Notes under the pieces: model-generated
The model's database searches: none
The model's input: only the letters and a program-made list of their open reading frames with translations
What the model was told of the DNA's origin: nothing
Source of the DNA: Collinsella aerofaciens
GTDB lineage: Bacteria > Actinomycetota > Coriobacteriia > Coriobacteriales > Coriobacteriaceae
Assembly: GCF_901212495.1 (NCBI RefSeq)
Contig: NZ_CAAKNY010000082.1
Coordinates: 20,632 to 63,241 of the forward strand
Reading direction: 5' to 3'
Length of the DNA: 42,610 nt
Program-made: the position numbers and the translations under genes
In this document: piece by piece, positions 1 through 10,597 of the stretch
Layout: every line of letters begins with the position of its first letter
How positions within the stretch are numbered: the first letter of the stretch is position 1

Positions 1-240
1 CTATAGGAAGGTTGTCCGGATGTGGCATCGAGGCCCATCCAGGCCCGGTTGAGGCGGTCGCCAAGACTGTTTGGGCAACTGTGGGCTTGGTTGGGTTTGC
101 TGCGGCGGTATCGAGACGGCTTGGGCCCGGTTGGAATGGTTGCCAGAGGTGCGGGGGCGGCATCGGTCTTGTCTGGGATGGTTATTGGGGCTGTTGAGGT
201 GGTTTTGGGTGCCGCGGCGTCCTTTTGGCTGGGCGGTATA
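1..240. other. Left edge, no gene assigned
   Basis: G-rich stretch at the window edge. Short open frames exist on both strands, for example a plus frame closing near 197, but none has a ribosome binding site, a recognisable domain or a convincing start. It could be the tail of a gene entering from the left or simple intergenic sequence. Nothing more can be supported. Confidence 0.4.
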
Positions 241-275
241 AAACAAAACAGCTCAGAGGCGAAGCCTCTGAGCTG
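241..275 (-). terminator. Rho-independent terminator of tRNA-Val
   Basis: A perfect 12-bp stem (249-260 with 264-275) and a 3-nt loop. On the minus strand it is followed by a T-rich run (TTTTGTTTT). It lies 9 nt beyond the tRNA 3' end, so it ends the tRNA transcript. Confidence 0.9.
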
Positions 276-283
276 CGAACATT

Positions 284-358
284 TGGTGGGCGTTAGAAGA
301 TTTGAACTTCTGACCTCTTCCGTGTCAGGGAAGCGCTCTCCCCCTGAGCTAAACGCCC
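284..358 (-). tRNA. tRNA-Val (GAC)
   Basis: Read on the minus strand, a full cloverleaf forms. The acceptor GGGCGTT pairs with AACGCCC, the D stem is GCTC/GAGC, and the anticodon stem CTTCC/GGAAG encloses the loop CTGACAC, giving anticodon GAC (valine). The T stem AGAAG/CTTCT closes a TTCAAAT loop. The 3' CCA is encoded in the DNA (284-286). It has its own promoter and terminator. Confidence 0.97.
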
Positions 359-387
359 GATCAAGGGTGCGCGAGTGCGCAGGAAAT

Positions 388-416
388 AATATAACGGAGC
401 TCCCACCCAGTGGCAA
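388..416 (-). promoter_or_regulatory. Promoter of tRNA-Val
   Basis: On the minus strand, TTGCCA (411-416) and TATATT (388-393) are separated by exactly 17 nt, close to the sigma-70/SigA consensus, about 30 nt upstream of the tRNA 5' end. Confidence 0.75.
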
Positions 417-588
417 GAACTATTTTTTAAAATGCGCCGATTTGCGATCCTATCCGCTCCGATGCAGCGCGAACAGCACGCGGAAAGTCGCGTTTGTACC
501 CCCGATGAACTGCGCGTTCGCGTAAAATGGTTCCATTATGGGCAAGTCGTGCCCAGGCAGTTTACAACGCGGCAAATGGGGGAGGGGC
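417..588. other. Intergenic region upstream of the exported-protein cluster
   Basis: Non-coding on inspection. It should hold the promoter of the gene cluster starting at 589. A TAAAAT hexamer at 523-528 could be a -10 box but no well-spaced -35 is visible, so I do not call a promoter. A purine-rich ribosome binding site (GGGGGAGGGG, about 578-587) lies just before the ATG at 589. Confidence 0.5.
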
Positions 589-1473
589 ATGTCGGACGCG
601 CGCTCGCTGCGAAAACAGTTCAATCGCATGCTCGCCACGTTGCTGGTGGCGCTTGCTGCTGCCGGAGCCGTAACGTATGCCTGGTACATCTACAACGCCA
701 ACCGCCATATCACCGACGTCAAGATGGCCGCGGGCACGGGCGTGACCTTCCTCATCTCCAACGAGTACGACGGTGAGTACAAGACCAACGCCGGTCTGAG
801 CTTTGCGGGCCTGCTCGATCCCGTCTCGACCGATAACGTGCTCAACGGGTTCCAAAAGGTAACGGGCTTTACCGGTGGAACCACGCAGGACTCCCTGTTC
901 GCCAACATGTTTGGCGCGGCCAAGCATTCCGACTACACCAAGACCTCCCTGTACCTGGCCACCAACTCGGCCGCAACCGACGTGTACCTGTCGGGCATCG
1001 ACTTTACCGAGCAGGATCCGGCAAACCCCATCTCCACCGCCCTGCGCGTGGGGCTGGTCGCCTATGCTCCGGGCAAAAGCGATACCGTTACCGGCCAGTA
1101 CGTCTTTGAGGTCTCGGGCGAGCACAACCCCCAGGCGCGCTACAACACACTCGACGGCAAGGACGCCGGCGAAAACGAGCAGAACCACTTGGTGCTCGAC
1201 AGTACCCGCTCCGATGGTTCCACGATCCATTTTGACCAGCTGACCAGCGCAAACTTCTGCGACTACAACGAAAACACCGGCGTGGTTGGTCTCAAGGAGG
1301 CCACGACCAAGATCTGCAGCCTGCCCGTCGCTGCCAAGGGCGCCAACCGTAGCACGCCCGTGCGTGTGGATGTATACGTGTGGCTGGAAGGCTGCGACCC
1401 CGATTGCACCAACAACCTGGCCGCCACCAGCTTGCAATCGCTGGCGCTGCGCTTTGCCGGCAAGCGTTCGTAA
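589..1473 (+). CDS. Exported SipW-substrate-like surface protein, paralog 1
   Basis: 294 aa. The N-terminus has a basic stretch (RSLRKQFNR), a hydrophobic helix at about residues 14-30 and the boundary motif TYAWY. That layout matches signal peptides cut by SipW-type peptidases (TasA/camelysin-like proteins), and a SipW-type peptidase is encoded four genes downstream. The rest is Thr/Asn/Asp-rich and looks extracellular. Motifs shared with the next three genes are DPVST near residue 80, a beta-strand-like LRVGLV, and WLEGCDPDC at residues 265-273 near the C-terminus. I recognise no named domain. ATG 589 is chosen over an in-frame upstream ATG because a strong purine-rich ribosome binding site precedes it and the signal anchor then starts near the N-terminus. 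First gene of a likely operon. A structural fibre or coat subunit is an inference. Confidence 0.8.
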   Translation: MSDARSLRKQFNRMLATLLVALAAAGAVTYAWYIYNANRHITDVKMAAGTGVTFLISNEYDGEYKTNAGLSFAGLLDPVSTDNVLNGFQKVTGFTGGTTQDSLFANMFGAAKHSDYTKTSLYLATNSAATDVYLSGIDFTEQDPANPISTALRVGLVAYAPGKSDTVTGQYVFEVSGEHNPQARYNTLDGKDAGENEQNHLVLDSTRSDGSTIHFDQLTSANFCDYNENTGVVGLKEATTKICSLPVAAKGANRSTPVRVDVYVWLEGCDPDCTNNLAATSLQSLALRFAGKRS

Positions 1474-1484
1474 GGGGGCCAGGG

Positions 1485-2321
1485 ATGAGTACGTCGAACA
1501 TCAGAGACATCCTAAGCTCGCGTCGCCGCATGGCGGCTGCCGCTGCATGGATGTTCGTGCTGGTGACCGTCCTGAGCGCCGCCACCTACGCCTGGTTTAG
1601 CAACTCGCGTTACACCAACGTGACACCCGTGGCGCGCACGGTAAGCGACGAGGGCTCCGACCTGCAGATTGGCCTTTCGGCCAACGGACCATGGGACACA
1701 ACGGCAACGCTTGCCGCCGCCGACAAAACGCTCTATCCCATCTCGACGGCCGATCTTTCCCGTTTTTGGCGCGGCACGTTCCAAAATGCCGCGGGCATTA
1801 CGACCGACTACTCCGATTGCACCGCGCAGCTGGACGACTATGCCCTCACTGGCACGCTGTACCTTAAAGGCAGTGACAGCGCCCTCAACGTGTACCTGTA
1901 TCAGGGCCAGATGAGCGTGACGAGTGATCCACAGCTGCTGGCCGCGCTGCGCCTGGGCCTGGTCATCACGACCCAGTCGGGTACGCAGACGCATATCTTT
2001 ACCTGCGACGACCTAGGCAATACCGCGGGTGCCACCAGCAGGCGCACCACGGCGCAAGACGGCGTGGTCGTAGCGGGCGGCGCCTCGGGCTGGAGCTACG
2101 CTGCCGACCCTGCGCACGCCATAAGCGCCTACAGCATGGACGGCACCGGTGACACGCCCGCAGCGCGCGCGGGCGCCACGCCCATCTGCACGCTGGCCGC
2201 CAACGAGGTGGCAAGCGTTCGCTACGTTGTGTACATGGAAGGCTGCGATGCCAATTGCATCGATGAGGCTCAGGCCCGCGATGTGGTACTGCAGCTTGCC
2301 TTTGCCGCGGCCAAGGCATAA
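1485..2321 (+). CDS. Exported SipW-substrate-like surface protein, paralog 2
   Basis: 278 aa. Basic N-terminus (SSRRR), hydrophobic helix at about residues 16-35, then ATYAWF at the predicted membrane boundary. LYPISTADL lies near residue 85, a LRLGLV strand follows in the middle, and YMEGCDANC sits near residue 250. These match paralogs 1, 3 and 4 in the same order, so the four arose by duplication. It starts 11 bp after paralog 1, with AAGGGGGCCAGGG as ribosome binding site. An in-frame start farther upstream would lie inside paralog 1 and is rejected. No enzymatic motif is seen. The likely role is secreted or surface-exposed, processed by the peptidase at 4188; the function itself is unknown. 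Confidence 0.8.
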   Translation: MSTSNIRDILSSRRRMAAAAAWMFVLVTVLSAATYAWFSNSRYTNVTPVARTVSDEGSDLQIGLSANGPWDTTATLAAADKTLYPISTADLSRFWRGTFQNAAGITTDYSDCTAQLDDYALTGTLYLKGSDSALNVYLYQGQMSVTSDPQLLAALRLGLVITTQSGTQTHIFTCDDLGNTAGATSRRTTAQDGVVVAGGASGWSYAADPAHAISAYSMDGTGDTPAARAGATPICTLAANEVASVRYVVYMEGCDANCIDEAQARDVVLQLAFAAAKA

Positions 2322-2334
2322 GGGGGCGAGCGAC

Positions 2335-3321
2335 ATGGAAGACCAGAAGCATATGCCAGCAGATAACCGCAAGGCCAAAACCCAGAGCACGGGCCCCGCA
2401 GCCCCCTCCAGCGCGTCCGCCGAGCGTGCACGCCTCGAGGGTGTCGCCGCCCGCCGCCACGCCCGCCGCGCGCGTGCCTACATCGCGCTCGTCATGGTGG
2501 CGCTCGCCGCCACGCTGAGTGCCGCAACCTATGCCTGGTTCACCAGCAACATGAAGGTCAACACCAACTCGGTGAGCGTGCACAGCGACACGTCCAAGCT
2601 GGTATTGGAGCTGGGCGACGCCGATGCCGGCAGCTGGTCGCAGCAAGGCGATGCATCTCTGGCCTCCACCGCGAGCGGGGCCGCGACGCTCTATCCGGTC
2701 TCGACCTTCGACCTCAACGGCTTTGCTGCCTGCGCGCAGAACAATTCCAACGGTGATGCCACGGTATTTGAGCAGGCAAAAGACAACGGCTCCGCGTTTT
2801 ATCACGGCTGGATCGACCTGCGTCCCACCATCACGGGCACGGGCGCCAACAAGGTTAAGGGCAAGGTGAGCCTGTATCTGGCCGAGTCGCTGGTTCCACA
2901 GGGTGCCGACGCCGAGCTGCTGCGCGCGGCCCGCGTGGGCATCAAGATCTCGAGCGGCAGCCAGGTGCTCGCCACCAACATCTTTGAGCTCGACAGTTCC
3001 GACAGCGGCCATCGCGGCGAGCATCCCATGACCGTCCCGGCTGGCCTTGCCGGCTACACCGAGGGCATGCTCCTGGGCTGGCAAAACGGCCAACTTGCCT
3101 GCGGTGCCAACGTGACACAGGACCCGGCCACCTTTACGCTGGACACGAGCGAGACGGCCGAGCGCCCGCAAAACTCGCTCGCCACGCTGGCGCTGGGCCA
3201 GACCTATCGTCTGGATATCTATTACTACATCGAGGGCACCGACCCCGATAGCGCCGACTACCTGCACCAAGACCCGGGAACCCTGCACCTGGCCCTCTTT
3301 GCGACCTTGGATGGTGAGTAG
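2335..3321 (+). CDS. Exported SipW-substrate-like surface protein, paralog 3
   Basis: 328 aa, the longest of the four. It differs by a hydrophilic, basic N-terminal extension of about 45 residues rich in Ala, Arg and Lys, which would stay in the cytoplasm before the hydrophobic helix at about residues 49-65 and the ATYAWF boundary (residues 64-69). LYPVSTFDLNGF lies near residue 121 and IEGTDPDS near residue 300, where paralogs 1 and 2 have a Cys pair; this copy has Thr and Ser instead. The start is 13 bp after paralog 2, with AAGGGGGCGAG upstream. The long cytoplasmic tail might contact a cytosolic partner such as the ATPase at 4924, but that is speculation. Confidence 0.78.
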   Translation: MEDQKHMPADNRKAKTQSTGPAAPSSASAERARLEGVAARRHARRARAYIALVMVALAATLSAATYAWFTSNMKVNTNSVSVHSDTSKLVLELGDADAGSWSQQGDASLASTASGAATLYPVSTFDLNGFAACAQNNSNGDATVFEQAKDNGSAFYHGWIDLRPTITGTGANKVKGKVSLYLAESLVPQGADAELLRAARVGIKISSGSQVLATNIFELDSSDSGHRGEHPMTVPAGLAGYTEGMLLGWQNGQLACGANVTQDPATFTLDTSETAERPQNSLATLALGQTYRLDIYYYIEGTDPDSADYLHQDPGTLHLALFATLDGE

Positions 3322-3323
3322 CC

Positions 3324-4127
3324 ATGACGTGTGAGCAACCCGCCGCCAACTGCACGCCCGCCACCGGCAAGCCCAACGCCGCTGTACCCACCGATACCGA
3401 CCTGCGCCGCAAGCTCACCACCACCGTGGTGCTGGTCCTGTTTGCCCTGGTGGCGATAGCCATGGCAACCTTTGCCTGGTTCTCCATCGCCGATAGCGCC
3501 AAAACCCGCATGCTCATGATCGACGCCAACGCTGACGGTTCGCTGCGCTTTGACCTGGACGAGCATGCCACCTTCGACGAATACATCCACAGCCTGGGCT
3601 TCGACCAGATCTCGGCGCGCATCGCCAGCGAAAAGGGCGTGGACATCGACGCATCCAAGCTCAAACCCGTCACCACGAGCGACTACCAGACCTTTACCTT
3701 CGAGGATGGTTCCACCGCCGATCCCGCCACCGGCGCCTACCTGGAGTTTACGCTGCACTTTATGAGCAGCACGGACCTGCGCGTGCGCCTGACCGGCCAG
3801 GACGGCGACAACGGCGCATCCGGCACGCGGTTTGGCTCCGATACGCAGGGCATGGCCAGCGCCATGCGCATGAGCTTTACCGCCGACGGCCACACCTGGG
3901 TCTATAACCCCAACGGGGGCGGGGGCTCATCGGGTTCTGTCACGGTCTTTGGGCTCGACTCGGGCGCTGCCACCGCGGCCAGCGATATGTTCGACCTGAT
4001 AAAAGATACGGATAAGCCGGTGACCGTTCGCATATGGCTCGAGGGAACGGACCCAAATTGCACTAATATGCTAAAGGGAGCTAACTATTCGGTTTCGATG
4101 CGCTTTGAGGGCATCGAGGAACAGTAG
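3324..4127 (+). CDS. Exported SipW-substrate-like surface protein, paralog 4
   Basis: 267 aa. A 28-residue polar N-terminus, a hydrophobic helix at residues 31-48, then ATFAWFSIAD. It is the most diverged copy: the LYPVST motif is reduced to KPVTTSDY, and a Gly/Ser-rich loop (NGGGGSSGS) interrupts the middle. The C-terminal WLEGTDPNC motif (residues 238-246) is kept. It starts 2 bp after the stop of paralog 3, so the two are translationally coupled. A Gly-rich linker and loss of some motifs could mean an accessory or capping subunit rather than the main subunit, as in other fibre systems; this is inference only. Confidence 0.77.
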   Translation: MTCEQPAANCTPATGKPNAAVPTDTDLRRKLTTTVVLVLFALVAIAMATFAWFSIADSAKTRMLMIDANADGSLRFDLDEHATFDEYIHSLGFDQISARIASEKGVDIDASKLKPVTTSDYQTFTFEDGSTADPATGAYLEFTLHFMSSTDLRVRLTGQDGDNGASGTRFGSDTQGMASAMRMSFTADGHTWVYNPNGGGGSSGSVTVFGLDSGAATAASDMFDLIKDTDKPVTVRIWLEGTDPNCTNMLKGANYSVSMRFEGIEEQ

Positions 4128-4134
4128 ATACGCA

Positions 4135-4154
4135 CGGCGGCCACCGGGCCGCGC
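4135..4154 (+). promoter_or_regulatory. Hairpin between the surface proteins and the first peptidase
   Basis: GCGGCC (4137-4142) pairs with GGCCGC (4147-4152) around a 4-nt loop, in the 60-bp gap between paralog 4 and the signal peptidase. There is no T-run, so it is not a classical terminator. It may protect the upstream mRNA or reduce read-through so that substrates are made in excess of the peptidase. Confidence 0.45.
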
Positions 4155-4187
4155 ACGACCTAGTCAGACACGGTAGTAAGGGACATC

Positions 4188-4931
4188 ATGCAATCTGTTA
4201 AAAAAGTCGCATCCATCGCGCTGAGTGTCGTCATGTGGATCATCATCCTGGTGGCGGCCTTGTATGCGTTTACCACGCTCGCCACGCACGAGGACGGCAG
4301 CGTCTCCGACATCGCTGGCTTCACCCCGCTCGCCGTGCAGTCCGACTCCATGGCGCCCACGTTTAACAAGGGCGACCTCATCATCATCCAAAAGTGCGAC
4401 ACCTCAAAGCTCGAGGTGGGCGACATCGTGACGTTCCACACCATCATCGACAACGAGTACGCGCTCAACACGCACCGTATCGCCGCGATCGACGAGGTCA
4501 ACGGCATGCGCAGCTTTACCACCAAGGGCGACAACAACGACGTGGCCGATACGCACATCATCAGCGACGGCGACATCGTGGGCAAGTACGTGTTCGCGTT
4601 GCCGCAGATGGGCAAGGTCATGGACTTCCTGTCCAGCTCCATGGGCTTCCTTGTTGTGATCGTGCTGCCCATGCTGCTGTTCTTTATCTACCAGGTGTAT
4701 CACCTCATCGTGGTGGGCATGAACCTCAAGCGCGCTATGGCCGAGGAGGATCGCCTGGCCGCCGCGGCTGCCATCGTGGACGCCGAGGGCAAGGGCACTA
4801 CTGTCACCGCCGATAATGCCGCCGAGCAGCTCGCCCAGGCCGAGGCCAAGCTCGCGGAAGCCCGTCGTCTGAAGGCCGAGGCCGAGGCGGCGATGAACGC
4901 GACCAAGCAGGAGGGTACCGACGGTGAGTGA
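4188..4931 (+). CDS. sipW-like: SipW/ER-type signal peptidase I
   Basis: 247 aa membrane protease of the SipW (MEROPS S26B, ER/archaeal-type) signal peptidase group. An N-terminal membrane helix (about residues 8-28) is followed by the catalytic serine motif QSDSMAP (Ser54) and GDIVTFH. The NTHRI motif supplies His96 where bacterial type I enzymes have lysine. The acidic motif TKGDNNDVAD (about residues 112-121) follows. A second membrane segment spans about residues 150-178, and a highly charged Ala/Glu/Lys tail (about 185-240) likely forms a cytoplasmic coiled coil, which ordinary SipW lacks. It follows four genes with SipW-type signal anchors, so it probably processes them. It overlaps the next gene by 8 nt. 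Assignment to the group is firm; substrate pairing is inferred from position. Confidence 0.9.
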   Translation: MQSVKKVASIALSVVMWIIILVAALYAFTTLATHEDGSVSDIAGFTPLAVQSDSMAPTFNKGDLIIIQKCDTSKLEVGDIVTFHTIIDNEYALNTHRIAAIDEVNGMRSFTTKGDNNDVADTHIISDGDIVGKYVFALPQMGKVMDFLSSSMGFLVVIVLPMLLFFIYQVYHLIVVGMNLKRAMAEEDRLAAAAAIVDAEGKGTTVTADNAAEQLAQAEAKLAEARRLKAEAEAAMNATKQEGTDGE

Positions 4932-6615
4932 GTTTCTGGGATTTGCCTGGGAGCTGCTGGCAAAGGTCGTCTACAACGTCGTTGCCGTCGTGAGCTCTAT
5001 CCTTAACCTGCTGGTGTTTGGCTGGGTTGAGTACTTCAACATCTTTATGACCTACTTCACCACGTTCGACCTGGTGGGCAAGATTGGCGCGGTCATTCTG
5101 TTTGCCATGCTCATCGCGGTTCCCGTGCTGATCGTGGCCATTCTGGTCCACCGTTACCGTATCAACCGCCGCCTGCATCGCGACGATACGTCCAACAAGG
5201 CGCTCTACCGCGAGATCGGCCGCCTGAACAAGCAGGTGCTCGACCTGATGGACGAGAAGAATAAGCTGCTGGCGCTTAAGGTCAATGCCATGGGCGGCAC
5301 CAAGCAGATTCCGTACGTGGGTGCCTCGGCTCTTGCCGACGACCATCTGCCCACGGTGGGCAACGTGGTGGGCGCCGCTACGGGTGTGCCCGCGGGCGAG
5401 GGCGCCACGGCTGCCGTGGTGTCGGGCAACGCGTCGCTCGCGCTCGATGGCGAGGGCGTCAAGGATGCCGCGGCCGCCATGGCCAAGGCTACCGTCGAGG
5501 CCAAGACCCTTGCCGAGGAAAAAGAGATCGCCCAGGCCAACCGCTTCCCCAAGCTGTCCCTTGTGGACCTTAAGTACCGCGACTGGGAATCGCCGGTCTA
5601 CGACGATGCCATCTCGCTGGAGGACTTTGTCGAAAGCTTCCGCGCGTTCGCCTGCAGCCAGATGAAGCTCTACTACACACCCGAGATCATCCGCCGCTTT
5701 GTGGCCGGCATGGCCGCCTCCAAGCTGCTGATCCTGGAGGGCATCTCGGGTACCGGTAAGACGTCGCTGCCCTACAGCTTTAGCCGCTACCTGGACAACC
5801 CCGCGACCATCGTGTCGGTGCAGCCGAGCTTCCGCGACCGCACCGAGGTGCTCGGCTACTTTAACGAGTTCTCCAAGCGCTTTAACGAGACCGAGTTCCT
5901 CCGCGCCGTGTACGAGGCGGGCCTGCGCCAGGACCCGTCCATGATCGTGCTTGACGAGATGAACCTCGCCCGCGTGGAGTACTACTTTGCCGAGATCCTG
6001 TCGGTGCTCGAGATGCCCAGCCACGACGAGTGGGTACTCGATCTGGTCCCCACCCAGTGGGCCGCCGACCCCAAGGGCCTGCACGACGGCAAGCTCACCA
6101 TTCCCGACAGCCTGTGGTTCATTGGCACCGCCAACAACGACGACTCCACCTTTACCATCACGGACAAGGTGTACGACCGCGCGATCCCCATCGAGCTCAA
6201 CGAGCGCGCCGACGCGTTTGAGTGCGAGCCGCACGAGCGCGTGCACGTGACGGCCGACCACCTGCAGTATCTGTTCCAGAAGGCCAAGGTCGAGTACGTG
6301 ATCGACGACGAGCTGCTCCAGAAGATGCACAAGCTGGACCAGTACCTGCAGACCCGCTTTAAGCTGGCCTTTGGCAACCGTATCATCAAGCAGATGTACG
6401 ACTTTATCCCCGTGTACGTGGCGTGCGGCGGCACCGAGCTGGGCGGCATGGACTACATCATTGCCCGCAAGGTGCTCAAGAAGTTTGAGTCCATGAACGT
6501 GAGCTTTGTGCGCGACGAGATGAAGGGCCTGATCGAGTACATCGAGAAGACCTTTGGCGAGGGCGGCCTGCCCGATTCCGTCATGTACCTGCAGCGGATC
6601 CAGAACTTCTACTAA
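4924..6615 (+). CDS. Membrane-anchored McrB-like AAA+ ATPase
   Basis: 563 aa. Two membrane helices at about residues 10-35 and 50-77 are followed by a basic stretch, a short coiled coil (about 88-118) and an Ala/Gly-rich linker. The AAA+ core of the McrB group begins near residue 225. It has Walker A GISGTGKT (273-280), Walker B MIVLDEMN (340-347), and a sensor segment beginning WFIGTANNDD (from 398) that ends in KVYDRA with a candidate arginine finger. No DNA-recognition domain like that of McrB is visible; the membrane anchor takes its place. The GTG start at 4924 overlaps the peptidase stop. The downstream DUF2357 gene is the expected McrC-like partner. I infer a membrane-bound motor acting with the peptidases on surface-protein assembly; an anti-phage role is the main alternative. 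Confidence 0.85.
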   Translation: MSEFLGFAWELLAKVVYNVVAVVSSILNLLVFGWVEYFNIFMTYFTTFDLVGKIGAVILFAMLIAVPVLIVAILVHRYRINRRLHRDDTSNKALYREIGRLNKQVLDLMDEKNKLLALKVNAMGGTKQIPYVGASALADDHLPTVGNVVGAATGVPAGEGATAAVVSGNASLALDGEGVKDAAAAMAKATVEAKTLAEEKEIAQANRFPKLSLVDLKYRDWESPVYDDAISLEDFVESFRAFACSQMKLYYTPEIIRRFVAGMAASKLLILEGISGTGKTSLPYSFSRYLDNPATIVSVQPSFRDRTEVLGYFNEFSKRFNETEFLRAVYEAGLRQDPSMIVLDEMNLARVEYYFAEILSVLEMPSHDEWVLDLVPTQWAADPKGLHDGKLTIPDSLWFIGTANNDDSTFTITDKVYDRAIPIELNERADAFECEPHERVHVTADHLQYLFQKAKVEYVIDDELLQKMHKLDQYLQTRFKLAFGNRIIKQMYDFIPVYVACGGTELGGMDYIIARKVLKKFESMNVSFVRDEMKGLIEYIEKTFGEGGLPDSVMYLQRIQNFY

Positions 6616-6626
6616 TGGCGTAAGTG

Positions 6627-6649
6627 CGGGGGGCGTGACGTCGCCCCCG
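6627..6649 (+). promoter_or_regulatory. GC-rich hairpin between the ATPase and DUF2357 genes
   Basis: CGGGGGGCG (6627-6635) can pair with CGCCCCCG (6642-6649) around a 6-nt loop, inside the 69-bp gap. No run of T follows, so it is a pause or mRNA-stability element rather than a clear terminator. A weak ribosome binding site (GGAG, about 6674) lies before ATG 6685. Confidence 0.45.
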
Positions 6650-6684
6650 CCCCTTTCCGATCGATCCAACCTATGGAGTAACCC

Positions 6685-8745
6685 ATGTCCGAGACCATTC
6701 AGGACCTCTATACCAGCTTCTCCGAGCAGATGGAGCCCATCCAGGAGGACAGCCGCTACTTCCACTATCTGTTCGAGATGGCGCAGGCCTCGGGCACCAC
6801 GATCGAGCAGCAGCGCGAGGAGCTCGTCAAGGTGGTGGACGAGGAATGGATCAGCATGATCGAGGACTCGCTCGACGCCATCAACACCATTATCGAAAAG
6901 CCGCGCCGCTTCATCACCACCGAGGAAGAGGTGGTGCCGGTCTCGCTCGCCAAAAAGATCAGCGCCGACAGTGTCCGTCACCTGAGCCAGAACACGCAGT
7001 TCCTGGCGCCGAGCGACGATGGCGGCGTCCACCCTACGCGCATCCTCAACGTCAATACCGTCGAGACGTACGACCTGTATGAGAATCGCTTTATCTACCA
7101 CCTGATTCAGCGCCTGCTGACGTTTGTGGACAAGCGTACCGACGTGATCTTTTGGTCGACGGGCAACGAGATCCGCAACCGCTTTAAGATGCACAGCAAG
7201 ATCGACGACGCGTACGAGGAGATCGAGTACAACGTCGAGATGACGGTCAAGAACCGCCAGAGCTTTGCCGAGAACGACGCCGACAACATGGACGTCTTTA
7301 TGCGCATCGACCGCGTGCGCCGCCTGGTCATGGCGCTGCGCGGTGCGTCGTTCTGCCAGATCATGAACGGGTGCAGCGCGGTCCGCAGCCCCATTCAGCG
7401 CACCAACCTCATCATGAAAGATCCCAACTATCGCAAGTGTTACCAGCTGTGGCAGTTTATGGAGCGCTACGACAAGGTGGGCTACAACATCGACGTGCAG
7501 CAGCAGGCGCTGGCGTTCGATGACGAGTACATGGTGCAGATGTACACCAACCTTATCAACAACTACACCGTCTTTAAGAGCCTGACCGACGACGAGCGCA
7601 ACCTGCAGGAGCTCGAGAGCGTGCAACACGCGCCGGTGGCGCCCAAGTTTATCAAGGAGATTCAGGAGGTGCAGGTCGATAGCCCCGACCTGCCCGATGT
7701 CGAGGTCCGTCGCGTGTTTGTGGAGGAGGTCACGCAGGCCCAGCTCGATGCCGAGCAGGCGCTGGCCGAGGCCCGCGAGCATATTGAGGAGCTGCAGGGG
7801 CAGCTTAAGTCTTGGAAGGTTCAGGCCCATGCGCTGACCGATGAGCGCGATGATCTGGCCGACGAGCTGGACGAGGCAAAGACGCGTGAGCTGGCGTTGA
7901 CGCAGCGCGCTCAGATGGCCGAGGCTGATGTTGAGGAGCTGCGCGCTTCGCTGGAGGATGTCGAGGCGGGCAAGAAAGCCGCCGAGGCCGACGCTGTCGA
8001 GGCGCGTGAGACCGCGGCGGCCCAGCTGGCGCAGATGCGTGCCGAGGCCGATGCCGAGGTCACGGCCGCTCGCGCCGATGCCGATGCCAAGATTGCTGCC
8101 GCCAAGCTGCAGGTCGAGGAGGTACAGCTGACGGCAGAGCGCGATGCCCGCGCCGCGCAGGAAGCGGCCGACGCCGCCGCTGCTGTAGCGGAGCAGAAGC
8201 TCGCCGACACCGTCGCCGCGGCCGAGGCGAAGGTTTCCGCCGCCCAGCAGGCCGCCGATGCCGCGATCGATGCTGCCCGCGCCGCCGCCGACTCTGCCGT
8301 TGAGCAGGCTGCGGTGGATGCCAACGAAAAGGTCGCCACCGCTGCCGCCGAGCGCGACGCCGCCGCGCGTGCCGCCGAGGAAGCTCGTGCCGATGCCGAT
8401 GCGCGCATTGCCGCCGCCGGGCTCGAGGCCGGGGAGCGCATCGAGCAGGAGGTCGCCGCCGTTCGCGCCGCTTGCGAGCGCGAAGTCGAAGCCGCTCGCG
8501 CGGAGATGCAGCGGCGCCTGGATGCACTGGCGCAAGAGCTGGAGCAAGCCGAGCGCAATCGCGAGCGTGCCGAGCGCCGTGCCGAGGGCAACAGCCTGTC
8601 GCGCTACCTGCTGGCTCGCCTGCGCGGCGAGGCTGGCGAGGGCGTGGCCGCCGCGCCTGACGAGGATGGCGCTTCTGCGACGGATGCCACCGGGGCCGAG
8701 GTCGCTGCCGACCCCGAGACTTCCGCAAAGGACGCCGACAAGTGA
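6685..8745 (+). CDS. DUF2357 (McrC-like) protein with long coiled coil
   Basis: 686 aa. Residues 1-320 match the DUF2357 pattern by eye: an alpha-helical start, then ETYDLYENRFIYHLIQRL (about 130-147) and the later SPIQRTNLIMKDPNYRKCYQ segment (about 236-255). Proteins of this family usually carry a PD-(D/E)XK nuclease domain after this region. Here I see none. Instead residues about 345-635 are an almost uninterrupted Ala/Glu/Asp/Arg-rich coiled coil, ending in a short basic patch and an acidic Ala/Asp tail. It is therefore probably not a nuclease. It follows an McrB-like ATPase, so it likely plays the McrC role of ATPase activator, with the coil as a spacer or scaffold. Its stop overlaps the next start by one base. 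The function is unknown. Confidence 0.8.
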   Translation: MSETIQDLYTSFSEQMEPIQEDSRYFHYLFEMAQASGTTIEQQREELVKVVDEEWISMIEDSLDAINTIIEKPRRFITTEEEVVPVSLAKKISADSVRHLSQNTQFLAPSDDGGVHPTRILNVNTVETYDLYENRFIYHLIQRLLTFVDKRTDVIFWSTGNEIRNRFKMHSKIDDAYEEIEYNVEMTVKNRQSFAENDADNMDVFMRIDRVRRLVMALRGASFCQIMNGCSAVRSPIQRTNLIMKDPNYRKCYQLWQFMERYDKVGYNIDVQQQALAFDDEYMVQMYTNLINNYTVFKSLTDDERNLQELESVQHAPVAPKFIKEIQEVQVDSPDLPDVEVRRVFVEEVTQAQLDAEQALAEAREHIEELQGQLKSWKVQAHALTDERDDLADELDEAKTRELALTQRAQMAEADVEELRASLEDVEAGKKAAEADAVEARETAAAQLAQMRAEADAEVTAARADADAKIAAAKLQVEEVQLTAERDARAAQEAADAAAAVAEQKLADTVAAAEAKVSAAQQAADAAIDAARAAADSAVEQAAVDANEKVATAAAERDAAARAAEEARADADARIAAAGLEAGERIEQEVAAVRAACEREVEAARAEMQRRLDALAQELEQAERNRERAERRAEGNSLSRYLLARLRGEAGEGVAAAPDEDGASATDATGAEVAADPETSAKDADK

Positions 8746-9449
8746 TGAAGCACGTGCTCCGCGTGATCAACGTGCTGGCGACCGTGGTGATCCTGGCCGC
8801 CTTTGTGGTGCTGCTGCGCACGGTGTTCACGCCCGCCGGCGAGATCCCCACCATCATGGGCTATGGCTTTATGCGTACGCTGACCGGCTCGATGGAGCCG
8901 GCGATTCCCGTGCATTCGTTTATCGTCGTCGATACCGACAACAGCCGGGTCTACCAAGCGGGCGATATCATCACCTTCCATTCGTCTGATGACGCGCTGG
9001 AGGGTTCGCTCAACACGCACCGTATCGTATCCGTGGAGGCCGCGTCCGACGGCTCGCTGGTCTATCACACTAAGGGCGATGCCAATCCGGTCGAGGACGC
9101 CGCGCCCGTGCCCGCCGCCGATGTGGTGGGCCGCGTGGTCTTTGTCTCGGCAGGCCTGGGCGTGGTGGTGTCGCTGTTCACCAACCCGCTGCTGTTCTTT
9201 CCGTGTATCGTGGTGCCGTTGATTGTGCTGCTGGTGCTCGAGATTCGCCATATGGTTAAAGCCACGCAAGAGGTGGCGCGTGCCGAGGACGAGGCCGCCC
9301 TGCGTGCTGCCGTGGAGCAGATTCGCGAAAAGCGCCGTCGCGAGCAGGAAGGCCAGGACAGCGACAAGGAGCAGGGCGACGGTGGGCATGCTGAGGGAAG
9401 TGCGGAAGCCGACCCCGGTGCCCTCGACGATTCCAACCGCTCGGCATAG
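8745..9449 (+). CDS. sipW-like: Second SipW/ER-type signal peptidase
   Basis: 234 aa from ATG 8745 (a GTG lies one codon upstream). N-terminal membrane helix at about residues 5-27, catalytic TGSMEP (Ser49), GDIITFHS, NTHRI with His92, acidic TKGDANPVED (Asp112), a C-terminal membrane segment at about 135-170, then a charged tail rich in Glu, Arg and Lys. It is clearly related to the enzyme at 4188 but diverged, so this is not a recent duplication. The TGATG junction couples it to the DUF2357 gene. Two such peptidases in one cluster suggest different substrates or successive steps. No further exported protein follows, so its substrate is either one of the four paralogs or encoded elsewhere. 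Confidence 0.9.
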   Translation: MKHVLRVINVLATVVILAAFVVLLRTVFTPAGEIPTIMGYGFMRTLTGSMEPAIPVHSFIVVDTDNSRVYQAGDIITFHSSDDALEGSLNTHRIVSVEAASDGSLVYHTKGDANPVEDAAPVPAADVVGRVVFVSAGLGVVVSLFTNPLLFFPCIVVPLIVLLVLEIRHMVKATQEVARAEDEAALRAAVEQIREKRRREQEGQDSDKEQGDGGHAEGSAEADPGALDDSNRSA

Positions 9450-9574
9450 CTCATCGGCGTCTTTCATCCCCACCATTTGGACGCTCGTAGATGTTCCGAA
9501 TCGTCTACTTTTCCATACCAATATTCGTGCTACAGTTTGAGCGCTTTGTTGCCAATTGATTTCGGGGGAGTGGA
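9450..9574 (+). other. Intergenic gap before the exporter gene
   Basis: 125 bp without a gene. No clear terminator for the upstream cluster is visible. A purine-rich ribosome binding site (GGGGGAG, about 9564-9570) precedes ATG 9575. AT-rich sequence around 9500-9540 probably contains the promoter; TACAGT at about 9530 is a possible -10 but a matching -35 is unclear. Confidence 0.4.
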
Positions 9575-10597
9575 ATGGAACAGGAGCGCTCGGCGCAGCG
9601 TGCATGCGAAAAGGCTTCGGTGCCGATGACGGCGGCGTCCGATTTTGTCGTGCCCGAGGGGACTGACGAGCTCAGCCGCAGCACCCGCCGTGCATGGCGC
9701 GACCGCCTCAACGATGCGTCGTCGCGCAAGATGGCCCTGGGTGTGCTCGCCGCGGCTGCCGGCGGAACGTTTTGGGGCTTTTCTGGCACCAGCGCCAGCT
9801 ACCTCTTTGACGTGTGTCATATCGAGACGTTTTGGCTCATGAGCGTGCGCCAGGTTTGCGCCGGCCTGCTCTTTATGCTCGTCGTGCTCAAAAAGGATCG
9901 CGACCGCTTGGTTAAACTGTGGACCACCCCCGCCGACCGCAAGCAGCTCATCCTGTTTACGATTTTTGGCTTGCTGTTCAACCAGATTTGCTATCTGTCG
10001 GCCGTGCGCCTAACCAACGCGGGCACGGCGACGGTGTTCCAGTGCCTGCAGCTGGTGGTCGTCATGGGGTATGCCTGTGTTACCACGCATCGACTTCCGC
10101 GCACGCGCGAGACGCTTGGTGTTTTGCTCGCCTTGGGCGGAACGTTTCTTATCGCCACGGGCGGCGACCCCAGTACACTGAGCATTTCGCCGATGGGCCT
10201 GCTCGCGGGCCTTCTGTGCGCCGTGGGTGGTGCCTGCATGGCAATTATCCCGGCCGGAATCCTCAAGGAATACGGCAGCCCGGTCGTCACGGGTTCGGCC
10301 ATGCTCTCTGCCGGAATCGTGCTGAGCATCTTCACCCAGCCGTGGGTCCACGTACCGGCGCTCGAGCCCTCGGGCGTCGTCGCGCTTGCGGTGTTCATCG
10401 TGGTCGGATCGTTCTTTGCCTATATGTTCTATATGCAGGGTGTTAAGGAGATCGGCTCGGTGCGCGCGAGTCTCATTGGAACCATGGAGCCGGTTTCGGC
10501 TACCATCACCAGCGCCCTCATGCTGGGAACGGTGTTTCTGCCCACCGACCTGGCGGGTTTTGCCATGATTATCGCGATGGTGTTTTTAACGGTGTAG
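9575..10597 (+). CDS. DMT superfamily (EamA) transporter
   Basis: 340 aa integral membrane protein of the drug/metabolite transporter superfamily. After a hydrophilic N-terminus of about 45 residues come two EamA repeats of about five helices each. The first begins GGTFWGFSGTSASYLF and contains LTNAGTATVFQCLQ. The second contains the typical GSVRASLIGTMEPVSATITS motif near the C-terminus. Such proteins export amino acids, nucleotides or other small metabolites; the substrate cannot be read from sequence. The gene appears to stand alone, with spacers of 125 bp upstream and 139 bp downstream. ATG 9575 is supported by its ribosome binding site. Confidence 0.88.
   Translation: MEQERSAQRACEKASVPMTAASDFVVPEGTDELSRSTRRAWRDRLNDASSRKMALGVLAAAAGGTFWGFSGTSASYLFDVCHIETFWLMSVRQVCAGLLFMLVVLKKDRDRLVKLWTTPADRKQLILFTIFGLLFNQICYLSAVRLTNAGTATVFQCLQLVVVMGYACVTTHRLPRTRETLGVLLALGGTFLIATGGDPSTLSISPMGLLAGLLCAVGGACMAIIPAGILKEYGSPVVTGSAMLSAGIVLSIFTQPWVHVPALEPSGVVALAVFIVVGSFFAYMFYMQGVKEIGSVRASLIGTMEPVSATITSALMLGTVFLPTDLAGFAMIIAMVFLTV

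What the first reader, a model, noticed from the sequence alone, without database searches (positions are those of the whole stretch)
589..9449. Candidate new surface-assembly system: SipW-type substrates and peptidases joined to an McrB/DUF2357 ATPase module
Eight tightly packed genes combine four SipW-type exported paralogs, two SipW-type signal peptidases, a membrane-anchored McrB-like AAA+ ATPase and a DUF2357 protein lacking a visible nuclease. McrB/McrC-like pairs are known from restriction and other defence systems, SipW from TasA-like fibre biogenesis. I know of no described system that uses both. The gene order (substrates, peptidase, ATPase, DUF2357, peptidase) and coding overlaps argue for one function.
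Basis: partly seen in the sequence, partly recalled or inferred. Interest (0 to 1): 0.85.

Follow-up and report, generated by a model that had tools for sequence, protein, structure and literature searches.

The report
Surface-fibre operon with McrB-like NTPase
A gut-type bacterium carries a block of eight genes that probably builds protein fibres on the cell surface with help from a relative of a DNA-restriction motor; the family was briefly named in 2024, and here its parts and likely working are laid out.

Summary
Window 589-9449 holds eight same-strand genes: four SipW-type exported paralogs (S1-S4), SP1 peptidase, membrane-anchored McrB-like NTPase, nuclease-less DUF2357 protein, SP2 peptidase. 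They keep this order in Collinsella and Clostridia: 16 of 28 loci complete, 11 more agree as far as readable, one unclear. So it is one system, but not undescribed: Bell et al. 2024 (PMC11090510) named NxD McrB loci with signal peptidases 'CoCoPALM' in one passage; the window fits.

Best reading: c-di-GMP-regulated assembly of a TasA-like donor-strand fibre, paced by the NTPase, whose task is inferred.

The parts
284..358 (-). tRNA-Val (gac), left edge of the inserted block
   Evidence: ARAGORN, Rfam; the same tRNA lies close to the EamA gene in relatives without the operon
589..1473 (+). S1: SipW-type exported TasA-like subunit; mature part from about 682; C-terminal WLEGCDPDC motif
1485..2321 (+). 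S2: SipW-type exported subunit
   Evidence: one group across phyla in the tree
2335..3321 (+). S3: SipW-type exported subunit
   Evidence: (TIGR04088 below cut-off); profile match to S2, probability 99.9
3324..4127 (+). S4: SipW-type exported TasA-like subunit
4188..4931 (+). SP1: SipW-type signal peptidase I with a charged, coiled-coil-like C-terminal tail (tail judged by eye)
   Evidence: TIGR02228 112.4 bits; conserved S54-M55 and N94-T-H-R97
4924..6615 (+). McrB-like AAA+ NTPase of the NxD type: N-terminal membrane segment(s), heptad-like stretch, AAA domain (GTG start)
   Evidence: G278-K279-T280, D344-E345, N404-x-D406 invariant in 15 rows; E. coli McrB 6hz4/6ut6, E about 1e-6; hydrophobic segments
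6685..8745 (+). DUF2357 (McrC N-terminal-like) protein, long coiled-coil-like C-terminus, no nuclease found
   Evidence: PF09823 E 1.1e-11; no [DE]xK among the invariant columns of a 12-row alignment
8742..9449 (+). SP2: second SipW-type signal peptidase I
   Evidence: TIGR02228 82.6 bits; conserved S50-M51 and N91-T-H-R94 (numbering of the ORF that starts at 8742)
9487..9508 (+). terminator-like hairpin with a T run just after SP2
   Evidence: consensus match only (15 such sites in 200-9800 on both strands, 6.1 expected)
9575..10597 (+). EamA-like transporter gene, right neighbour of the insertion; not part of the system
   Evidence: name EamA is recalled, not from a call; match in 42 of 42 genus genomes, strong (E below 1e-100) in 40; lies near tRNA-Val in relatives lacking the operon

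Best explanation
The operon is a CoCoPALM-type system that builds a TasA-like protein fibre on the cell surface. Steps, with status. (1) S1-S4 are exported with SipW-type signal peptides; SP1 and SP2 cut them after the A in 'YA|WF' (inferred from motifs and gene linkage). (2) Cutting frees 10-20 loosely folded residues that act as a donor strand, so subunits join head to tail by donor-strand exchange as in TasA (inferred from models). (3) The fibre base is ANCH, a subunit of the same superfamily that keeps its membrane anchor and a cytosolic tail (architecture and co-occurrence shown; role inferred). (4) On the inner face of the membrane the McrB-like NTPase, held by its N-terminal segments and stimulated by the DUF2357 protein, paces or orders subunit delivery through contacts with peptidase tails or the ANCH tail (inferred, weakest step). 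(5) A PilZ protein encoded beside ANCH switches the system with cyclic di-GMP (linkage and motifs shown for the window's branch; control inferred). In Collinsella the block was gained horizontally at tRNA-Val (empty site shown).
For: Eight-gene order kept: 16 of 28 loci complete, 10 cut by contig ends, L065 with N inside S3, L060 unclear. S1-S4 form four separate groups in an 88-row tree, so the positions are old and distinct. TasA fibre 8aur is the top VIA-align row for both models, followed by Sulfolobus 0406 filament 7pnb; FimA-type pilins and Pyrobaculum pili are also listed. Low-confidence N-terminus: first two ten-residue blocks of S1 at pLDDT 41 and 43, first block of S4 at 49. ANCH is in exactly the 17 of 250 Clostridial-family genomes that have the NTPase at 52% or more over its core, and exactly the 3 of 297 order genomes with the operon. 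ANCH is related to S4 (probability 97.1) and less surely to S1 (86.5). PilZ is in 5 of 297 order genomes, among them all 3 carriers, and next to ANCH in those 3; RxxxR and DxSxGG are invariant in 12 of 12. Empty site.
Confidence: 0.65

Rival explanations
1. Anti-phage defence: a membrane-bound McrBC relative that senses infection, with the exported proteins as a surface barrier or receptor mask.
For: McrB family membership; candidate-defence model PDC-M26A matches the NTPase at E 3.1e-37; patchy presence (2 of 43 genus genomes) and insertion beside a tRNA.
Against: No nuclease or other known effector domain was found in the eight genes; the strict partner is a TasA-like anchored subunit; the neighbouring PilZ gene points to a life-style switch; the PADLOC hit may be what many McrB relatives would give (not tested).
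Confidence: 0.12
2. Envelope remodelling without a fibre: the S proteins are single cell-wall or membrane-surface proteins and the NTPase is a quality-control or extraction machine for them.
For: AAA+ machines commonly unfold or extract membrane proteins (general knowledge); the TasA match is weak by Z.
Against: Four fixed subunit positions plus an anchored relative look like a multi-part fibre with a base and minor parts; two different subunits both rank the TasA fibre first, with other pilus and filament subunits near it.
Confidence: 0.18
3. The NTPase pair is an unrelated neighbour, kept by chance next to secretion genes.
For: More distant McrB/DUF2357 loci do exist in which no peptidase was detected.
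Against: Same order in Collinsella and Clostridia; ANCH and this NTPase clade mark the same 20 genomes among 547 searched.
Confidence: 0.02

Closest known systems
CoCoPALM systems (Bell et al. 2024, eLife, PMC11090510; passages read)
   Same: NxD McrB NTPase fused to membrane and coil helices, coiled-coil McrC relative, signal peptidase neighbours, predicted pilus link
   Different: The passages give no substrate fold, no ANCH, no PilZ and no fixed eight-gene order; its supplement could not be read here
Bacillus TasA-TapA-SipW fibre operon (recalled, plus listings)
   Same: SipW-type signal peptidase beside its exported substrates; TasA-like fold suggested for S1 and S4
   Different: No NTPase module in tapA-sipW-tasA (recalled); here four or more subunits, two peptidases and an uncut anchor; no sequence match to TasA seen
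CoCoNuT and classical McrBC type IV restriction (passages of PMC11090510)
   Same: McrB-like NTPase with a DUF2357 partner
   Different: Classical McrBC has a nuclease and NxxD; CoCoNuTs come with nucleases; here no nuclease was found and the NTPase is membrane-anchored
Sulfolobus 0406 filament and Pyrobaculum bundling pili (7pnb, 7ueg)
   Same: Close structural neighbours of the S models; donor-strand filaments (recalled)

Membership tests
CoCoPALM | McrB-like NTPase with NxD instead of NxxD motif | tested here: met
   GTANNDDST in the window; N404 and D406 invariant in 15 rows, of which three (two of L142, one of L148) lie outside the clade
CoCoPALM | NTPase fused to a membrane and coiled-coil region (FtsB-like) | tested here: inconclusive
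   Hydrophobic segments at 5-23 and 57-75 and a conserved heptad-like stretch after them; no FtsB chain among PDB profile hits up to E 10
CoCoPALM | Signal peptidase family genes next to the pair | tested here: met
   SP1 and SP2 pass TIGR02228; synteny
CoCoPALM | Coiled coils on both the McrB and the McrC relative ('usually') | tested here: inconclusive
   Judged by eye and from weak SMC-like or CENP-F-like matches of the DUF2357 protein; no coiled-coil predictor was run; six of the seven sister-tier DUF2357 proteins aligned lack the long tail
CoCoPALM | Place inside the published CoCoPALM branch of the McrB tree | not testable with these tools
McrBC restriction (type IV) | Active PD-(D/E)xK nuclease on the McrC protein | tested here: not met
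   No nuclease family hit and no [DE]xK among invariant columns of 12 homologs
TasA/camelysin fibre proteins | Sequence match to a TasA or camelysin model or structure | tested here: inconclusive
   No TasA or camelysin model among Pfam or NCBIfam hits up to E 1 for S1-S4 apart from TIGR04088 (signal peptide only) below cut-off on S3; none for the S4 or ANCH profile in PDB sequences; an absence does not exclude distant kinship
TasA/camelysin fibre proteins | TasA-like fold | tested here: inconclusive
SipW-type secretion | SipW-like peptidase beside substrates with SipW-type signal | tested here: met
   Conserved SM and NTHR motifs; YAWF/FAWF-type junction in the window's S1-S4 and in nearly all S1-S3 orthologs, with many S4 orthologs reading for example SVAWF, TAAWF or TVAWM. 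The SipW model NF046067 itself is below cut-off; cleavage not tested
c-di-GMP receptor (PilZ) | RxxxR and (D/N)xSxxG motifs in the PilZ protein beside ANCH | tested here: met
   Invariant in 12 of 12; Pfam PilZ hit in 12 of 12. The protein is not in the window itself

The most novel reading that the evidence does not exclude
A restriction-type NTPase pair (McrB/McrC) has been turned into the engine of a c-di-GMP-switched, donor-strand surface fibre: a Gram-positive fibre pathway with its own NTPase, several dedicated subunits, an uncut anchor subunit and two dedicated signal peptidases, spread between Clostridia and Coriobacteriia by horizontal transfer.
Probability: 0.4. Interest if true: 0.85.

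Novelty: new member of a known kind. Interest (0 to 1): 0.6.

Why it matters
In the literature searched, CoCoPALM is a name with almost no anatomy. This locus and its relatives give a parts list, a probable product (TasA-like fibre), a strict partner (ANCH) that marks the system in genomes, and a probable switch (PilZ). If right, an NTPase family known for restricting foreign DNA also builds cell-surface fibres, and Lachnospiraceae and Collinsella carry an unstudied adhesion or biofilm apparatus. Each step can be tested with single gene removals.

Tried and rejected
Defence as main function: considered because PADLOC PDC-M26A matches; not adopted for lack of a known effector and because of the ANCH and PilZ linkage. 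Nuclease remnant in the DUF2357 protein: no family hit, no conserved motif. McrC by PDB profile search: no McrC chain, only a coiled-coil hit at E 0.056, so the DUF2357 label rests on Pfam. FtsB homology: not seen. TasA by sequence: not seen. The first count with the whole DUF2357 protein (2 of 58 genomes) was loaded with coiled-coil candidates of which at most 20 a genome were scored, so later counts used the NTPase core. Direct repeats at the insertion edges: only 8-9 base matches, so no att site is claimed. Base composition of the operon (0.59-0.70 G+C) does not stand out clearly from its flanks; horizontal gain rests on the empty site and patchy presence. Promoter scan: no more than chance. 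Large or unnamed Clostridial neighbours (one protein each of families F8-F11 and one unclustered neighbour) had no Pfam hit at 0.01 and were left.

Papers: searched (DUF2357; 5 listed of 5; SipW+McrB; 1 of 1; SipW, TasA, Clostridia and others; 30 of 824; SipW-like, CalY, camelysin; 40 of 27,580; CoCoPALM; 10 of 10; TasA+PilZ; 12 of 126; McrB+signal peptidase+pilus; 12 of 13). Going by titles and starts of abstracts, only PMC11090510 and its preprint PMC10542128 bear on the joined system. Of PMC11090510 I saw passages, of PMC13082335 the abstract and outline, of all others the listing only. TasA operon details are recalled.

Full report
Observation. The eight genes are real and tightly packed on the + strand (spacers 11, 13, 2, 60, -8, 69, -4 bases). 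S1 589-1473, S2 1485-2321, S3 2335-3321, S4 3324-4127, SP1 4188-4931, NTPase 4924-6615 (GTG start; M-S-E/D-F-L is shared by the close orthologs), DUF2357 protein 6685-8745, SP2 8742-9449. Pfam recognises SP1 and the DUF2357 protein over its cut-offs (PF10502, PF09823), SP2 and the NTPase only below them, and S1-S4 not at all. Both peptidases pass TIGR02228. The NTPase as a 15-row profile finds E. coli McrB structures at about 1e-6 and, apart from one weak Hsp104 hit, nothing else at 0.01.

Conservation. A scan of named species genomes with the NTPase gave 28 loci: two Collinsella at 98% and 26 with Lachnospiraceae, Clostridia or other Bacillota titles at 56-69%. In 16 of 28 all eight genes stand in the same order. 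Ten of 28 are cut by contig ends but agree as far as they go. L065 has N bases inside S3. L060 has a run of N between ANCH and the NTPase and shows no S1-S4 or SP1, so it is unclear. An 88-row tree keeps S1, S2, S3 and S4 as four groups (support 93/88, 99/98, 100/99, 100/100; S1 is the weakest, and the program warns of long branches). I infer that the four positions were distinct before the spread between phyla.

Limits of the family. Identities in this paragraph are over the 306-residue NTPase core. In a sample of 250 genomes from one Clostridial family (that of L048's genome, whose record is titled Lachnospiraceae) 53 have some NTPase hit: 2 at 77-78%, 15 at 52-56%, 2 at 42-46% and the other 34 weaker. 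I read 10 of the 15 middle loci: a signal peptidase in 10 of 10, a SipW-type subunit gene in 9 of 10 (L136 none detected), ANCH in 8 of 10 within the stretch (L136's genome has ANCH further along the same contig; L135 ends at a contig edge). Their gene order differs (ANCH, S, one or two peptidases, NTPase, DUF2357). The 42-46% tier (2 of 2 read) has NTPase-DUF2357-NTPase with no peptidase or subunit detected, and none of 8 weaker loci read (L143-L150, three of them from the window's phylum) showed a peptidase with my queries. Two of those distant DUF2357 proteins (L148, L149) also showed no nuclease model at E 0.01, so loss of a recognisable nuclease is not special to this clade. In the window's phylum 27 of 396 genomes have some hit but only G001 has the close NTPase, the next being at 37-38%.

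A ninth part. In 10 of 28 loci there is, behind SP2 or ahead of S1, a protein with a cytosolic tail, one membrane segment and an outer part ending in the W-hEG-x-DP motif of the S proteins, but without the YAWF cut site. I call it ANCH. Profile comparison relates it to S4 (probability 97.1, E 5e-11) and less surely to S1 (86.5). Searched genome-wide, ANCH occurs in 17 of 250 genomes of that family, exactly the 17 with the NTPase at 52% or more, and in 3 of 297 genomes of the window's order, exactly the 3 with the operon, while 9 further genomes with weak McrB-like hits have none. Nine of the 17 genomes had supplied rows of the ANCH query alignment; the other 8 had not. G671's ANCH match is only partial. 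The chance figure for identical sets (1e-26) ignores kinship among genomes and is only descriptive.

A switch. In the same 10 of 28 loci ANCH is preceded by a PilZ-domain gene. In the order sample PilZ occurs in 5 of 297 genomes: the 3 carriers and 2 incomplete genomes with larger proteins. In the three carriers PilZ is next to ANCH and further SipW-type subunit genes lie beside them: in G001 this locus ends about 6 kb upstream of the operon, in G030 it is on another contig, in G633 about 200 kb away. RxxxR and DxSxGG are invariant in 12 of 12 aligned PilZ proteins. PilZ was not detected in the ten sister-tier stretches. GGDEF domains are present in all six genomes searched: 9, 8 and 3 matches in the carriers, 5, 3 and 3 in non-carriers, so they say only that c-di-GMP can probably be made. 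The window's own genome is not held; its PilZ-ANCH locus is presumed, not seen.

Gain by Collinsella. Only 2 of 43 genomes of the genus sample carry the close NTPase. The EamA gene to the right has a match in 42 of 42, strong in 40. Of 30 loci fetched around it, ARAGORN reports tRNA-Val close to EamA in 15, of which 14 are sure (L104 was read across its ends); the window's stretch up to 433 and that from about 9560 align there about 200 bases apart, without the operon. In G001 the same tRNA precedes the operon. No direct repeats or integrase were established.

Known or new. Bell et al. [quoted passage not shown] The window NTPase has the NxD motif followed by D, as that paper says is usual. 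A full-text search found the name in 10 papers: that paper, its preprint, and eight that are off-topic by title. So the system class is named; the parts list, the subunit fold, ANCH and PilZ were not found in print by the seven searches told under Tried and rejected, and the paper's supplement was not readable.

Mechanism and its weak point. Export, cutting and fibre formation follow from the parts. The step for the NTPase is the least certain: it may order subunit release, power a gate, or recycle the peptidases. Its DUF2357 partner would stimulate it as McrC does McrB (passages of PMC11090510). The defence rival is kept at 0.12.

Noticed in passing
L141 9007-13301 (-), L142 5397-9785 (+): A related module NTPase-DUF2357-NTPase (42-46% core identity) in two genomes of the Clostridial family sample, without peptidase or SipW-type genes detected within the stretch; one NTPase has a weak membrane-protein (tetraspanin) match.
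   Followed up: partly
L085 7628-12352 (G001), L088 6709-11290 (G633): PilZ-ANCH locus with two more SipW-type subunit genes, near or far from the main operon; possibly the main fibre subunits.
   Followed up: partly
L056 2-5332, L059 1-5094, L041 16943-21629, L062 13649-18259: Very large proteins beside the Clostridial operons; the one of L056 and the one of L062 were scanned and had no Pfam match; possible adhesins.
   Followed up: no
L044 2511-5317 and similar places in L045, L047, L050, L053, L061: argS and a gene with an A24-peptidase N-terminal domain lie upstream of the operon in 6 of 28 loci (clusters F5 and F6; names from L044's copies).
   Followed up: no
window 4804-8547 (-): A 1247-codon open frame on the strand opposite SP1 to DUF2357, most likely a by-product of high G+C coding.
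   Followed up: no
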